A DNA stretch of 64,000 nucleotides, taken from an uncultured Pseudomonadota bacterium. Lineage in GTDB: Bacteria; Pseudomonadota; Gammaproteobacteria; Steroidobacterales; Steroidobacteraceae. The stretch is taken from contig CAISEB010000037.1 of the NCBI GenBank assembly GCA_903884235.1, positions 1 to 64,000 of the forward strand. The letters are read 5' to 3'. Both the position numbers and the translations under genes were made by a program. This document shows positions 1,988 through 6,709 of this stretch, piece after piece. Each line of letters opens with the position of its first letter. Positions within the stretch are counted from its first letter, which is position 1. The notes under the pieces are model-generated. The model did not search any database. It was not told the DNA's origin and saw only the letters and a list, made by a program, of their open reading frames with translations.

Positions 1988-2004
1988 TCCCGGGCATCTG
2001 GCAA
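1977..2004 (-). promoter_or_regulatory. Predicted sigma-70 promoter of lexA-imuA-imuB
   Basis: On the minus strand a -35 of TTGCCA (2004-1999) and a -10 of TATAAT (1982-1977) are separated by 16 bp. The overlap of the -10 with SOS box 2 supports a LexA-repressed promoter. Read from sequence only. Confidence 0.7.
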
Positions 2005-2130
2005 CCCTCCCGCGCAAACTGGCCCGCCATCGCCCCGACGGACGCCCGGAAGGCCTCGGTACGGAGCCGCACCGACGCCGCGGCACCACCACGTAAACTG
2101 CTTCCCAATCCCTGCGGCCAAGCGTGCTTG

Positions 2131-2201
2131 TCTCTACGCCGCGACATGCAGACCCGATGGAAGGACGTTACGTAATCAGGTACATTCGCGCTCCGTAGAG
2201 A
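2131..2201 (+). repeat. Inverted repeat upstream of the Lpp-like gene
   Basis: TCTCTACG at 2131-2138 is the exact reverse complement of CGTAGAGA at 2194-2201, and a small palindrome TTACGTAA (2168-2175) sits between them. This is the only structure I see in the 300-bp space between lexA and the lipoprotein gene beyond the SOS boxes. It could be part of the leader or an operator. I found no convincing promoter hexamers for the lipoprotein gene. Confidence 0.35.
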
Positions 2202-2283
2202 CGCGCATGACGCGGCGTCCCCGCTCCCGTCCGACGGGTGCGGTGTTTTTCGGTTGTTTTGTATCAAGATCCAGGAGCTATTC

Positions 2284-2607
2284 ATGATCAAGATTCTCAA
2301 GGTGAGCGCCGCTGCTCTGTGCGTTGTGTTCGCGGCCGGTTGCACGGACCTCAAGCCGATCCAGTCGCAGATCGACGATCTCAAGTCGCAGGTCAGCAAG
2401 ATGGCCTCTGCCAATGACAGCGCGATCAGCGCCGCCAAGGCGTCGGCCGACAGCGCCGCACGCGCCGCGCAGGCTGCCCAGACCGCCGCCCAGCAGGCCC
2501 AGAGCCGTGCGGACGCCGCGGCCTCGGCTGCCCAGGCGAGCCAGCAGTGCTGCGATGCGACGAACGAGAAGATCGATCGCATGTTCAAGAAGTCGGTCTC
2601 GAAGTAA
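2284..2607 (+). CDS. Lpp/OprI-like alanine-zipper outer-membrane lipoprotein
   Basis: 107 aa. The signal peptide ends in the lipobox VFAAGC with the lipidated Cys near residue 19. After it comes a helical coiled coil built from Ala/Ser heptads (SAAKASADSAARAAQAAQTA), the alanine zipper of Lpp and OprI. It ends in Lys, the residue by which Lpp is cross-linked to peptidoglycan. AGGAG lies 8 nt before the ATG at 2284; a longer frame from 2254 is unlikely because it would put residues ahead of the signal peptide. A Cys-Cys pair near residue 86 is odd for this family. A strong terminator follows, so it is monocistronic. An L,D-transpeptidase that could attach it is encoded 2 kb away. Confidence 0.88.
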   Translation: MIKILKVSAAALCVVFAAGCTDLKPIQSQIDDLKSQVSKMASANDSAISAAKASADSAARAAQAAQTAAQQAQSRADAAASAAQASQQCCDATNEKIDRMFKKSVSK

Positions 2608-2663
2608 GGGACCAGCGAACCACCACCGCGCGAATCCAACGGGACTCGCGCGACGGTTCGAAG

Positions 2664-2692
2664 AAAGCCGCGGCCCTGCCGCGGCTTTTTTT
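2664..2692 (+). terminator. Rho-independent terminator of the Lpp-like gene
   Basis: AAAGCCGCGG pairs with CCGCGGCTTT around a 5-nt loop (CCCTG), and the right arm runs into seven T residues. It stands 57 nt after the lipoprotein stop codon and separates it from the methyltransferase fragment. Confidence 0.92.
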
Positions 2693-2761
2693 ATGCGCGC
2701 GCAGTCCATCGGCCGCGCGCGCATGCCACAGTCGCGCGATCCCTTCGCCGCGCGTGCCGAC

Positions 2762-2920
2762 ATGACGAATCCCTGGCTGCACATCCCGCTCGCCGACTAC
2801 GAGGCGCACATGGCGCTGCCCGAGGTCGCACAGGCCGAGATGCTCGCCGAGGAACTCGAGATCGCCATCCGCCGGCGCGTGCCGGACTCGTGCGCGATCA
2901 TCGGCTGCGTGGGCGGCAAC
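2762..2920 (+). pseudogene. Class I SAM methyltransferase, N-terminal part, cut by the TnpB element
   Basis: The reading frame starts MTNPWLHIPLADYEAHMAL and reaches the glycine-rich SAM-binding loop at IIGCVGGN (residues 46-53), where similarity stops. The frame runs on only six residues into the inserted element (stop at 2939-2941). The rest of the gene resumes in the same frame at 4264. The family is a group of small class I methyltransferases of unknown substrate. An in-frame ATG at 2693 would add 23 residues but overlaps the terminator. Confidence 0.82.
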
Positions 2921-2989
2921 GAAAGCGCAGGGACGCGCTGACCCTGCTGCGACGGATGCGTAAGCAGAGGAGCTGCGGCGGAATTTTGA

Positions 2990-3003
2990 GTGCTCATGCC
3001 GCC
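2990..3003 (+). repeat. Left copy of a 14-bp perfect inverted repeat in the TnpB element
   Basis: GTGCTCATGCCGCC here is the exact reverse complement of 4247-4260 at the right end of the element. It lies 69 bp inside the left end and 77 bp before tnpB. Its role is unknown. Confidence 0.7.
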
Positions 3004-3080
3004 CTCGTTCCGCGGACCTCTCCATTTCTGGCTGAACGCATCAATTTCTGACGTAGGTTGCGGAAGGCGTCGCCACTAGG

Positions 3081-4256
3081 ATGGCGGCGATGCCCGAGAC
3101 TCCGATTCCGAACGTGATCCGCACGCTGCGCTTCAAGCTGCGCCGCGAGGGGGTTGCCTGGCTCGAGGCGGCGGCGGTCGAGGTCAACCAGGTCTGGAAC
3201 TGGGCGAACGAGGTCAGCTACAAGGCGGCCAGGCCCTATTCCGGCCCATCTCGGTGGCTGAGCGGGTTTGATCTGGACAAGCTCTCGACGGGAGCCACGA
3301 AGTGCTTCGAGCACGTCGGCGCCGACACGATCCAGAAGGTCGATGCCGAGTTCGCGCGGCGACGTCGCCAGTTCAGGAAGGCGAAGCTGCGCTGGCGGGT
3401 GAGCCGGGGGAGCCGGAGGTCGCTGGGCTGGGTTCCGTTCAAGGCCGCGAGCATTAGGCGTAACGGCCGGGCGCTGCGATTCTGTGGCAAGACGCTGCGG
3501 GTGTTCGAAGCGGACCGCTTCCTTGGGATTGACCGGTGGAGGGACGGCTGCTTCTGCCAGGACGCTGTCGGCGACTGGTGGCTCTGCCTGCCGGCACCGG
3601 TGGTGATCGAGGACATTCCCGCGGCAGAGGTTGATGTGGGCATCGATCTCGGCCTGCACGCGACGGCGACCACCAGCGACGGGGCGGTGCTGGACGCGGG
3701 TCGGGCGTACCGCGACCTGGAACAAAAGATCGCGACCGCCCAGCGCCGGGGCCACAAGCGTCACGCCAAGCGGCTGCACCGCAAGGCCTCGAGACGCAGG
3801 GCGTTCGCCCTGCATCGGTTCAGTCGGAAAATGGCGAACACGTATCAGATGATCGTCGTCGGCGATGTGAGTAGCCCGAAGCTGGCCCGGACGAGGATGG
3901 CCAAGGCCATCCTCGACTCGGGCTGGGGGCTGCTCCGGATGCAGCTGCAGTACAAGGGCGAGAGCGCCGGCAGGTGCGTCAGGATCGTCAGCGAGCGCAA
4001 CACCAGCCGCACCTGTTCAGCGTGCGGGGCCCTCTCGGGCCCCGCCGGTGTCAACGGGCTGCGTGTGAGGCTGTGGGTGTGTGGTGAGTGCGGGTGCGCT
4101 CACGACCGCGACGTCAACGCCGCGAAGAACATCCTGGCCGCGGGGAGGTGTTCCCCGTCCGTGTGCGGGAACGAGTCATCGCCACGTCACGCGCCGCCGA
4201 GCCGGACACCCCGTCCGCGCAAGGCACGGAAAGCGCGCGATGGGGCGGCGGCATGA
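3081..4256 (+). CDS. tnpB: TnpB, RNA-guided nuclease-family protein with altered RuvC-II
   Basis: 391 aa, the usual length for TnpB. TnpB proteins are RNA-guided, RuvC-type nucleases that help IS200/IS605 elements persist. The RuvC-I Asp is D189 in GIDLGLHATA. The zinc ribbon uses C312, C315, C334 and C337. RuvC-III is D344 in HDRDVNAAKNI. At RuvC-II the expected catalytic Glu (as in VVEDL) is Gly261 in IVVGDVSSPKL, followed by Asp262. From memory, a GDVSS/GNVSS version is shared by a known subgroup; E305 near the zinc ribbon could be a relocated acid. The stop lies 7 bp from the element end, so any guide RNA scaffold must overlap the basic C-terminal tail. ATG 3081 or 3090 could start it. 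Confidence 0.9.
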   Translation: MAAMPETPIPNVIRTLRFKLRREGVAWLEAAAVEVNQVWNWANEVSYKAARPYSGPSRWLSGFDLDKLSTGATKCFEHVGADTIQKVDAEFARRRRQFRKAKLRWRVSRGSRRSLGWVPFKAASIRRNGRALRFCGKTLRVFEADRFLGIDRWRDGCFCQDAVGDWWLCLPAPVVIEDIPAAEVDVGIDLGLHATATTSDGAVLDAGRAYRDLEQKIATAQRRGHKRHAKRLHRKASRRRAFALHRFSRKMANTYQMIVVGDVSSPKLARTRMAKAILDSGWGLLRMQLQYKGESAGRCVRIVSERNTSRTCSACGALSGPAGVNGLRVRLWVCGECGCAHDRDVNAAKNILAAGRCSPSVCGNESSPRHAPPSRTPRPRKARKARDGAAA

Positions 4257-4263
4257 GCACCAG
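4100..4263 (+). ncRNA. Candidate omega/reRNA scaffold overlapping the tnpB 3' end
   Basis: In known TnpB systems the guide RNA scaffold comes from the tnpB 3' end and right terminus, with the guide in adjacent host DNA. Here coding sequence fills almost the whole right end. Small hairpins are visible after RuvC-III: GGGGA (4142-4146) with TCCCC (4152-4156), and alternatively GTTCCC (4150-4155) with GGGAAC (4167-4172). The predicted guide would begin at 4264. The extent is a guess. Confidence 0.3.
4247..4260 (+). repeat. Right copy of the 14-bp inverted repeat
   Basis: GGCGGCATGAGCAC pairs perfectly with 2990-3003. It spans the tnpB stop codon and ends 3 bp before the inferred right boundary. 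Confidence 0.7.
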
Positions 4264-4722
4264 GGCTTCGAGGAACTCGCGCTGGCAGGCGTGCGGCGCA
4301 TCGTCGGCATCGACATCAACCCGAGCTACGTCGCCGCGGCACGGCAGCGCCACGCCGGACTTGCCGGCCTTGAACTGCATGTCGCGGATGCCGAGCGAGC
4401 CATCAGCGATTGCGAACCGGTCGACCTGGTCTATGCGGGACTCGTCCTCGAATACGTCGACGTCGCGGCAACACTCACGACGCTGCGCTCCCTCTGCCTT
4501 GCGGGTGGGCAGCTGGTGATCGTGCTACAAGGCGCGGGCAGCCACCCGCCGGTAACGCCCTCGCCTTACCGGAGCCTCGCCACGCTTGCCGGCACGTTGG
4601 CGCTGCGCCATCCAGATGCCATTGCCGCGCAGTGCGCCGAGGCAGGATTCGCGCACACGCGAACGCGCACCCGGACGCTTCCCTCCGGAAAGCACTTCGA
4701 GGTGCTCACGTTCAGCGGTTGA
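4264..4722 (+). pseudogene. Class I SAM methyltransferase, C-terminal part
   Basis: The frame resumes with GFEELALAGVRRIVGIDINP, where the acidic residue after motif I (VGIDIN) would bind the SAM ribose. It continues through DLVYAGLVLEYVD and ends PSGKHFEVLTFSG. It has no start of its own in a sensible place, because the open frame upstream is tnpB DNA read out of frame. Joined to 2762-2920 it gives a 205-residue protein, the full length I expect, so the insertion looks recent and otherwise undamaged. The substrate is unknown. Confidence 0.82.
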
Positions 4723-4758
4723 TGGTGCGCGACGGACCTGCGCCCGAACCGACGCGAC

Positions 4759-5727
4759 TCAGTGCGCCTCGGCGCCCGCGGCGATGGAATCCGCGACCGC
4801 AACGGGAATGCCCTGCTTCTGCTCGAACGCGCCTTCGGCGCGCTCCCAGGTGACCGGGCCCGCCGGGCGCACGCGCACGGCGTTGGCGACGAGACGGGCA
4901 AGCGCCGTGCGATCGGGCGCGACGACCGAGCTGTCGGTCGCCTCGAGCGGGGGATGCACCTCGACGTACAGGTGGCCGTCGCTCCAGCCGACCTTGTGCG
5001 GCTGGTTGACGAGCCGCACCGGCGTGTCGACGGCAACCATCTTGAACAGTTCCTCGATGTGCTCGGGATAGAGCCGCATGCAGCCGTGCGTGACCTGCAT
5101 GCCGACGCCGGCCGGCTTGTTCGTGCCGTGGATCAGGTAGGCGCCGCCGGGGATCGCGAGGCGCATCGCGTACAGCCCCATCGGGTTGTCCGGGCCTGCC
5201 GGGATCATCTTCGGCAGGATGTCACCACGCGCGGCGTGCTCCATGCGCACCGACTCCGGCGGGTACCACGCCGGGTCCTTGATCTTCTTCTCGATCTTCG
5301 TGAGGCCGAGTGGCGTCGCCCAGTCCATCTTGCCGACGCTGACCGGATACGTGACGACGACGCGCGCCTCGCCGGCCTTGGCCGGCGGGAAGTAGTACAG
5401 GCGATGCTCGGGCAGGTTGACGACGATGCCCTCGCGCGGCGCGTCCGGCAGCACGCGCCGCAACGGCAGGCGCACGAGCGTGCCCTCGCCCGGCAGCCAC
5501 GGATCGACACCCGGGTTCGCGTTGACCACTTCCTCGTAGCCGAGGCCCTGGCTGCGGGCGATGTCGATCAGCGTGTCGTCGTGCGTCGCACGCACCTCGG
5601 CGTACTCGCCGATGAGGTCGCCATCCGCCGGCAGCGCGAACATCGCCGCACGGGCCGGCACCGCGACGCACGCGAGCAGTGTCGCGACGAGGGCGAGGAT
5701 GGACGGCAGCGACGGACGGGCGGACAC
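4759..5727 (-). CDS. L,D-transpeptidase (YkuD) with LysM-like domain
   Basis: 322 aa from the GTG at 5727, chosen because it gives a normal signal peptide (residues 1-28, ending ARAA) and because upstream sequence belongs to fabH. A LysM-like peptidoglycan-binding segment (residues 45-90) precedes the YkuD catalytic domain. The active site is H214 and C216 in THGCMRL, with H200 in YLIHGT. Such periplasmic enzymes make 3-3 peptidoglycan cross-links or attach Lpp-type lipoproteins. It lies 13 nt behind fabH and may be cotranscribed. The role in anchoring the nearby Lpp-like protein is inference. Confidence 0.9.
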   Translation of the reverse strand: MSARPSLPSILALVATLLACVAVPARAAMFALPADGDLIGEYAEVRATHDDTLIDIARSQGLGYEEVVNANPGVDPWLPGEGTLVRLPLRRVLPDAPREGIVVNLPEHRLYYFPPAKAGEARVVVTYPVSVGKMDWATPLGLTKIEKKIKDPAWYPPESVRMEHAARGDILPKMIPAGPDNPMGLYAMRLAIPGGAYLIHGTNKPAGVGMQVTHGCMRLYPEHIEELFKMVAVDTPVRLVNQPHKVGWSDGHLYVEVHPPLEATDSSVVAPDRTALARLVANAVRVRPAGPVTWERAEGAFEQKQGIPVAVADSIAAGAEAH

Positions 5728-5740
5728 CTTGCGAGCGACC

Positions 5741-6709
5741 TCAGAACTTGAGCAGCGCCGAACCCCAGGTGAAGCCACCGCCGAAGGTCTCGAGCAGCAG
5801 CGTCTGGCCAGGCTTGATGCGCCCGTCGCGCACGGCGACATCGAGCGCGAGCGGGATCGACGCGGCCGACGTGTTGCCATGCTCCTGCACGGTCACCACG
5901 ACCTGCTCCATCGGCAGGTCGAGCTTCTTGGCCGCGGCCTGGATGATGCGCAGGTTCGCCTGGTGCGGCACGAGCCAGTCGATCGCGGACTTGTCGACGC
6001 CGGCCTTGTCGAGCGTCTGGTCGACGAGCCGCGAGAGCGTGTTCACGGCGACCTTGAAGACCTCCGCGCCCTTCATCTGGATGCCACCGGCGGCGCCGGC
6101 GCGCAGCGCGTCGAAGCCGCGCGACGGACCCATCGGGAAGCTCAGCAGGTCGCCGTACTTGCCATCGGCCGACAGGATCGTCGTCAGGATGCCCGGCTCC
6201 TCGGAGGCCTTGAGCACGACGGCACCAGCGCCGTCGCCGAACAGCACGCAGGTCGTCCGATCGGTCCAGTCGACGATGCGCGAGAGCGTCTCGGCGCCGA
6301 TCACGAGCGCGCACTTCGCCTCGCCGAGGCGGATGTACTTGTCGGCGATCGACAGCCCGTAGACGAAGCCGCTGCAGGCGGTCTCGAGGCTGAACGCCGG
6401 GCAGTCGTGGATGCCGAGCCGGTCCTGCACCATCGTCGCGACATTGGGGAACAGGATGTCGGGCGTGCAGGTGCCGACGACGACGAAGTCGATGTCATCG
6501 GCAGTGACGCCGGCCATCTCCATCGCGCGCCGCGCGGCCTCGGCCGACATCTGCGAGGTCGACTCGTGCGCCGACGCGAGGTGGCGGCGCTCGATGCCGG
6601 TGCGGCTGCGGATCCATTCGTCGGTGGTCTCGACCATCGTCTCCATCTCGGCGTTCGTGACGACCCGATCGGGGAGATAGCTGCCGGTACCGGCGATCCT
6701 TGAATACAT
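5741..6709 (-). CDS. fabH: FabH, beta-ketoacyl-ACP synthase III
   Basis: 322 aa. FabH condenses acetyl-CoA with malonyl-ACP to start fatty-acid synthesis. The triad is C112 in ETACSGF, H249 in LVPHQAN and N279 in HGNTSAAS. The start at ATG 6709 (MYSRIAGTGSYLP) lies one base after the plsX stop. It is the last fatty-acid gene of the yceD-rpmF-plsX-fabH operon. Confidence 0.97.
   Translation of the reverse strand: MYSRIAGTGSYLPDRVVTNAEMETMVETTDEWIRSRTGIERRHLASAHESTSQMSAEAARRAMEMAGVTADDIDFVVVGTCTPDILFPNVATMVQDRLGIHDCPAFSLETACSGFVYGLSIADKYIRLGEAKCALVIGAETLSRIVDWTDRTTCVLFGDGAGAVVLKASEEPGILTTILSADGKYGDLLSFPMGPSRGFDALRAGAAGGIQMKGAEVFKVAVNTLSRLVDQTLDKAGVDKSAIDWLVPHQANLRIIQAAAKKLDLPMEQVVVTVQEHGNTSAASIPLALDVAVRDGRIKPGQTLLLETFGGGFTWGSALLKF

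What the first reader, a model, noticed from the sequence alone, without database searches (positions are those of the whole stretch)
2762..4722. TnpB element inserted cleanly inside a small methyltransferase gene
Removing 2921-4263 rejoins the two fragments in frame at the SAM-binding glycine loop to give a complete 205-residue protein. The insertion has no target duplication and looks recent. It gives an exact empty-site prediction and, if the protein matters, a fresh loss of function.
Basis: partly seen in the sequence, partly recalled or inferred. Interest (0 to 1): 0.7.

Follow-up and report, generated by a model that had tools for sequence, protein, structure and literature searches.

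The report
TnpB element splitting a methyltransferase gene
A small bacterial transposon that carries an RNA-guided nuclease gene but no transposase has landed precisely inside an accessory methyltransferase gene and broken it, and a related species still has the uninterrupted gene; this is an ordinary kind of event, unusually well documented, with a testable prediction about how the nuclease finds its target.

Summary
Window 2921-4263 is a 1,343-bp TnpB-only element. Copies in the same genome that keep an end start or stop at the same bases. Joining 2920 to 4264 gives a 205-residue class I SAM methyltransferase that aligns without a gap across the junction to a syntenic intact ortholog in a congener (G006). 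Clean insertion, no target duplication and a broken gene are supported. "Recent" and "matters" are not: absence of stops has little dating power here, and only 2 of 15 genomes of the genus have a strong match to the gene. The element inserts 3' of CNAC (10 of 11 left ends read), with a variable base after the right end, which is IS200/IS605 behaviour. Its TnpB lacks the canonical RuvC-II glutamate (Gly261) but has the alternative one (Glu305, six residues before the zinc finger), the motif of the published "DPhiG + Ealt" group. No Y1 or serine transposase was detected in the genome, and an internally deleted derivative sits at different CNAC sites in two species, so mobilisation in trans is likely. 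Predicted: the TnpB guide is the methyltransferase sequence from 4264 onward, so it would cut the re-sealed allele. New member of a known kind; modest interest.

The parts
2762..2920 (+). 5' fragment of the methyltransferase gene (53 codons, up to ...CAIIGCVGGN); frame runs 6 more codons into the element, then stops
   Evidence: matches ortholog L010
2917..2920 (+). insertion target / predicted TAM, CAAC (consensus CNAC)
   Evidence: CNAC directly 5' of 10 of 11 left ends read in G000 (6), G006 (4) and G001 (1)
2921..4263 (+). TnpB-only IS200/IS605-type (IS1341-like) element, 1343 bp
   Evidence: same first and last bases in other G000 copies
2921..2995 (+). left end; the first 75 nt are kept in the 264-bp deleted derivative
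3081..4256 (+). tnpB, 391 aa; D189, G261 in place of canonical E, alternative E305, zinc finger, D344
   Evidence: Pfam PF07282 and PF01385, NCBIfam NF040570, alignments
4143..4263 (+). right end; presumed omega/reRNA scaffold overlapping the tnpB 3' end (limits approximate)
   Evidence: last ~100 nt nearly invariant in the 9 right ends aligned; fold only weakly better than shuffles (z -1.5, 16 of 200 shuffles as good); 2 of 46 pairs with a compensatory change, covariation term +0.55
4264..4279 (+). predicted guide segment (first 16 nt 3' of the right end)
   Evidence: position inferred from ISDra2 reRNA (PMC8612924, passages seen)
4264..4722 (+). 3' fragment of the methyltransferase gene (152 codons plus stop)
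   Evidence: Pfam Methyltransf_11; ortholog alignment
2991..3003 (+). 13-nt inverted copy of the right-end tip (matches 4247-4259); no exact match in the C5 copy
2254..2607 (+). flanking alanine-zipper lipoprotein ORF (true start probably inside it)
   Evidence: PF11839; synteny
4759..5880 (-). flanking gene used as the synteny anchor (LDT); called an L,D-transpeptidase from recall, no family search was run on it
   Evidence: matches in 56 of 60 genomes searched, paralogs included; synteny

Best explanation
A TnpB-only element of the IS200/IS605 type inserted 3' of a CAAC in the glycine-rich SAM-binding loop of an accessory class I methyltransferase gene and inactivated it. Shown: exact ends, the empty site in a related species, no duplication, the CNAC target, an open tnpB. 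Inferred: the single-strand transposition was done by a Y1 transposase acting in trans that is now absent or unassembled. Also inferred: the right end yields an omega/reRNA whose guide is the MTase sequence from 4264 on, so the TnpB, using its alternative RuvC glutamate, would cut any re-sealed CAAC-GGCTTCGAGG... allele and favour re-copying of the element. The interruption is therefore a dead gene kept dead by the element, not a regulated switch.
For: Ends shared with other copies. Empty site in G006 in the same gene order. 0 of 21 genome contigs relatives carry the element at the loop (one of the 21, L083, is the G006 contig itself). CNAC before 10 of 11 left ends, chance about 3e-16 against the window's CNAC frequency (the motif was read from the same ends and the ends were treated as independent). 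Base after the right end is variable: 5 C, 4 G, 3 A in 12 right ends, which PMC10711439 (passages) gives as an IS200/605 trait. Of 18 TnpB rows aligned, Glu305 is present in all 16 with letters there and the canonical Glu is Gly in all 17 with letters there (several rows are copies from one genome). A Y1 transposase sits beside the related TnpBs in G256 at C8 and C69. The same deletion derivative is at different sites in G000 and G006.
Against: No Y1 or serine recombinase was detected in this genome (assembly 95% complete), so the mobilising enzyme is unproven. One left end, that of the full C5 copy, lacks CNAC (ATCACA). The RNA fold is weak (z -1.5) and covariation is uninformative. No cleavage, RNA or expression data. 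G006's empty allele has CAAT, not CAAC, so it shows the empty site but is not itself a consensus target.
Confidence: 0.83

Rival explanations
1. The element is an IStron-like or otherwise spliced insert, so the methyltransferase mRNA is repaired and the gene still works.
For: Removal restores the frame exactly; TnpB elements with group I introns are known (recalled).
Against: A search of 2000-5600 at E up to 1 gave three hits, all below their gathering scores and none an intron family. Only 160 nt lie upstream of tnpB and 7 nt downstream, too little for a known group I intron (size recalled). Exact removal is equally expected of any IS200/IS605 insertion.
Confidence: 0.03
2. The element is an IS607-type insertion made by a serine recombinase.
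For: Ealt TnpBs of the DPG clade co-occur with IS607 TnpA (PMC10711439, section 23); no duplication is also typical of IS607 (recalled). G001 and G005, which hold related copies, do have serine recombinase genes.
Against: The base after the right end varies (12 right ends) and a 4-base motif lies before the left end. No serine recombinase found in G000 or G006. TnpB scores higher with IS200_TnpB (112.6 bits) than with IS607_TnpB (80.3), both under cut-off. Relatives in G256 sit next to Y1 transposases.
Confidence: 0.05
3. TnpB here is nuclease-dead and was recruited as an RNA-guided repressor (TldR-like), because the canonical RuvC-II glutamate is Gly.
For: Canonical E278 of ISDra2 (number as catalytic residue recalled) aligns to G261, and Gly is fixed in all 17 rows with letters there.
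Against: E305 sits six residues before the first CxxC, exactly the Ealt pattern of PMC10711439 (passages; section 23), and is present in all 16 rows with letters there; RuvC-I Asp is kept in 16 of 16 and D344 in 15 of 16 (L023 is decayed). The locus looks like a multicopy mobile element, not a fixed regulator.
Confidence: 0.06
4. The junctions are an assembly chimera between repeated element copies.
For: Multicopy element in a fragmented assembly of 59 contigs.
Against: Both flanks belong to one gene and one syntenic block that is contiguous in G006, so the flanks belong together; the window copy is only 91% identical to the other full copy.
Confidence: 0.03

Closest known systems
IS1341-type (TnpB-only) elements of the IS200/IS605 family (meaning of the name partly recalled; PMC9956272 outline and abstract seen)
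   Same: TnpB without TnpA, no target duplication, insertion 3' of a short motif, variable right flank, deletion derivatives
   Different: Target CNAC and right-end tip CCAG, against TTTAT/TTAT and TCAA ends in the 42-45% identical relatives of G361
DPhiG + Ealt TnpB clade (PMC10711439, section 23)
   Same: GIDLG motif and alternative glutamate six residues before the zinc finger
   Different: Nothing tested here separates it; no tree was built. The Fanzor-like DPG motif is absent
ISDra2 TnpB (PDB 8BF8, 8EXA)
   Same: RuvC and zinc-finger regions align, E 2.7e-18; RNA-guided cleavage of the donor joint is the model for function (PMC8612924, passages)
   Different: Canonical E278 replaced by Gly; TAM TTGAT versus predicted CNAC
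Small class I SAM methyltransferases (Pfam Methyltransf_11)
   Same: Glycine loop and Pfam match
   Different: Below the cut-off of every NCBIfam family listed for it; substrate unknown

Membership tests
TnpB (RNA-guided nuclease) family | OrfB/TnpB domains above curated cut-off | tested here: met
   PF07282 78 bits (cut-off 26.3), PF01385 42 (30.5); NF040570 158.6 (100)
TnpB (RNA-guided nuclease) family | Complete D-E-D catalytic set in the sequence | tested here: met
   D189, E305 (alternative position), D344; canonical E is G261. Placement in three dimensions not tested: the single-sequence model had mean pLDDT 35
TnpB (RNA-guided nuclease) family | RNA-guided, TAM-dependent cleavage | not testable with these tools
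   needs an assay
IS200/IS605 (IS1341 group) | No target duplication; insertion 3' of a short motif | tested here: met
   empty site; CNAC 10 of 11
IS200/IS605 (IS1341 group) | Variable base after the right end | tested here: met
   5 C, 4 G, 3 A of 12
IS200/IS605 (full IS605 with Y1 TnpA) | Y1 transposase in the element or genome | tested here: not met
   none detected in G000; relatives in G256 have it adjacent
IS200/IS605 (IS1341 group) | Structured right-end RNA | tested here: inconclusive
   conserved sequence but z -1.5, covariation not informative
IS607 | Serine recombinase and fixed flanking base | tested here: not met
   none in G000; flank varies
IStron | Group I intron in the element | tested here: not met
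DPhiG + Ealt TnpB clade | D-hydrophobic-G in RuvC-I and E six residues before CxxC | tested here: met
   GIDLG and ERNTSRTCSAC
DPhiG + Ealt TnpB clade | Position inside the clade in a tree | not tested
   no tree was built
Class I SAM methyltransferase | Glycine loop and Methyltransf_11 match | tested here: met
   3' fragment 34.1 bits, intact ortholog 44.1 (cut-off 21.2)

The most novel reading that the evidence does not exclude
A TnpB with the alternative RuvC glutamate and a re-specified, GC-rich target (CNAC) keeps the methyltransferase locked off by cutting every re-sealed allele, while the element and its 264-bp derivative move using a transposase absent from the genome, either borrowed or not of a known kind.
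Probability: 0.12. Interest if true: 0.6.

Novelty: new member of a known kind. Interest (0 to 1): 0.33.

Why it matters
It is a complete natural record of one TnpB-only insertion: occupied site, empty site, target motif, guide and a non-autonomous derivative. It yields a precise prediction (TAM CNAC; guide GGCTTCGAGGAACTCG) for a TnpB with the alternative catalytic glutamate, and it bears on how TnpB-only elements spread without their own transposase. The methyltransferase loss itself looks minor, since no strong match to the gene was found in 13 of 15 genomes of the genus.

Tried and rejected
Considered and dropped: splicing (no intron family); IS607 origin; nuclease-dead regulator; assembly chimera. 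Dating by absence of stop codons was tried and found nearly powerless. NG86 dN and dS of MTase against G006 (0.27 and 0.90) suggest past constraint but cannot separate time before from after the insertion; LDT and LexA in the same pair gave 0.096/0.50 and 0.014/0.37, so the MTase evolves faster. YN00 failed for the 3' part, the whole MTase and LDT. A promoter and terminator scan of 2550-4800 found nothing. A single-sequence structure model was unusable, mean pLDDT 35, and was not searched further; the second structure job was not used. Two papers on the rearranged TnpB site recalled by DOI were not held; one search found no paper, one search found no passage. Papers: PMC10711439, section 23 and passages; PMC8612924 and PMC11423790, passages; PMC9956272, outline and abstract; the others only as search listings.

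Rows dropped or limits: locus L033 gave no frame, so 18 rows remain, and L113, L024, L031, L039 lack some motifs (counts are given per motif). In one search only ends with E up to 1e-3 that reach within 3 bases of the element ends were kept; L035's right end (poor tip) is not in the 12. One search aligned 9 of those 12 right ends. Searches scored only part of their first-look candidates, so copy numbers are lower bounds. The weak hits (E 1e-5 to 1e-3) were treated as generic methyltransferases, not orthologs. An earlier count gave 16/16 and 15/15 for the TnpB motifs and 'all 21' for the loop; the correct counts are 17 and 16, and six of the 21 rows (L098-L103) are distant, two with extra residues.

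Full report
What is there. The window lies in contig 37 of a 4.12-Mb, 59-contig genome, 95% complete. The gene order is lexA, an alanine-zipper lipoprotein gene, the split methyltransferase, and a conserved gene on the minus strand (LDT; that name and lexA's are from recall, only the lipoprotein was searched against Pfam). The methyltransferase 5' fragment (2762-2920) ends at ...IIGCVGGN, and its frame runs six more codons into the element before a stop. The 3' fragment (4264-4722) keeps an open frame back to 4069, but that upstream part is an out-of-frame reading of tnpB. Joining the two gives 205 residues with the class I glycine loop GCVGGNGFEEL.

Ends of the element. Searching the own genome with 2700-4800 found a second full copy (C5, 91% identity, tnpB frame open), a copy cut by a contig end (C4, 744 bp), a 264-bp internally deleted copy, and several remnants. 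In G000, fetched copies that keep a left end begin at the base matching 2921, and those that keep a right end stop at the base matching 4263.

Empty site. G006, the same genus, has an intact ortholog (63% identity over 205 residues in tblastn; 64% in the alignment), between the lipoprotein and LDT genes. Its DNA runs through the junction without a gap. In genome contigs, 21 loci encode relatives; none carries the element at the loop. The 15 nearest (L083-L097) align there without a gap; L097 has one in-frame stop elsewhere in its match; the six others are distant, and two of them have two extra residues near the loop. L083 is the contig of G006:C8 by length (59,621) and 100% match, so it is not an independent locus.

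Does the gene matter? Of the 15 genomes of the genus searched (G000 to G014), only G000 and G006 have a strong match; G005 has one weak hit. In L060 and L064 the aligned parts of the lipoprotein and LDT genes are 127 and 169 bp apart, with no MTase match, and G005 has a CHAD-domain ORF in that place. So this is an accessory gene in a variable slot, and its loss is unlikely to be dramatic. I could not show that the insertion is recent: redrawing 10% of its bases leaves no stop in 47% of simulations. The window copy differs by 9% from the other full copy, and G000 also holds truncated remnants, so the family is probably an old resident of this lineage.

Target and family. Eleven left ends could be read, six in G000, four in G006 and one in G001; ten are preceded by CNAC, whose frequency in the window is 2.2% (binomial tail 2.6e-16; the motif was read from these same ends). 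The eleventh, the full C5 copy, reads ATCACA. Twelve right ends in G000, G005 and G006 are followed by C, G or A. A short motif on the left and a variable base on the right is IS200/IS605 behaviour as described in PMC10711439 (passages seen). At E up to 1e-30, related TnpBs (40-45% identity) were found in 4 of 368 other class genomes. They include G256, where a Y1 transposase gene lies beside TnpB on contigs C8 and C69, and G361, whose five copies begin after TTTAT or TTAT and end in TCAA, as classical IS605 elements do (recalled). No Y1 transposase was detected in G000, G001, G005, G006 or G019, which all hold copies or diverged relatives of the element, and no serine recombinase in G000, G006 or G019; G001 and G005 do have one. 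Within the genus only G003 has Y1 matches, and no element copy was found in it.

Non-autonomous derivative. G000 (264 bp, C4) and G006 (265 bp, C144) carry a derivative that keeps about 75 nt of the left end and about 198 nt of the right end and aligns end to end across the deletion junction, at different CNAC sites. A single deletion followed by movement is the simplest reading, and it implies mobilisation in trans; two similar deletions are not excluded.

TnpB. In the alignment with ISDra2 TnpB the canonical RuvC-II glutamate (E278; its catalytic role is recalled) falls on G261. Among 18 aligned rows, Gly is at this place in all 17 with letters there, Glu305 in all 16 with letters there, the RuvC-I Asp in all 16 with letters there, and D344 in 15 of 16; L023 is decayed. 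Several rows are copies from one genome. The Glu lies exactly six residues before the first CxxC, the pattern defined as Ealt in PMC10711439 (section 23 read). The enzyme is therefore probably active. The right end is nearly invariant over its last ~100 nt in the nine copies aligned, as expected for a guide-RNA scaffold, but the structural statistics are weak.

How it most likely works. By analogy with ISDra2 (PMC8612924, passages), the right-end RNA would carry about 16 nt of flanking DNA as its guide: here GGCTTCGAGGAACTCG of the methyltransferase. With CAAC as TAM, TnpB would cut an allele from which the element had been lost. With up to three mismatches, CNAC plus this guide matches 36 places in the own genome, against 7 for the reversed control pattern; the occupied site itself matches with one mismatch because CNAC is missing there, and the next best (C49) has two. 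So near matches exist, but no exact one. This is inference; no activity was measured.

Verdict. The worthwhile residue is the CNAC target of an Ealt TnpB and the missing transposase.

Noticed in passing
L003:82-345 (G000:C4:95879-96142) and G006:C144:7244-7508 (L025): An internally deleted derivative (264 and 265 bp) that aligns across the same deletion junction sits at different CNAC sites in two species; it keeps the left end and the presumed guide-RNA scaffold.
   Followed up: partly
L008:1501-1600 (G000:C5:49680-49779): A 100-bp piece with a right-end tip pointing outward at each end, in inverted orientation.
   Followed up: no
L054:424-1464 (G005): A CHAD-domain ORF occupies the lipoprotein-LDT interval in G005, where G000 and G006 have the methyltransferase: a variable gene slot.
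   Followed up: partly
window 2991-3003 and 4247-4259: A 13-nt inverted copy of the right-end tip lies inside the left region of the element; no exact match in the C5 copy.
   Followed up: no
L002:1480-1500 (G000:C5): The only other full-length copy found in the genome is also the only left end read without CNAC (ATCACA).
   Followed up: no
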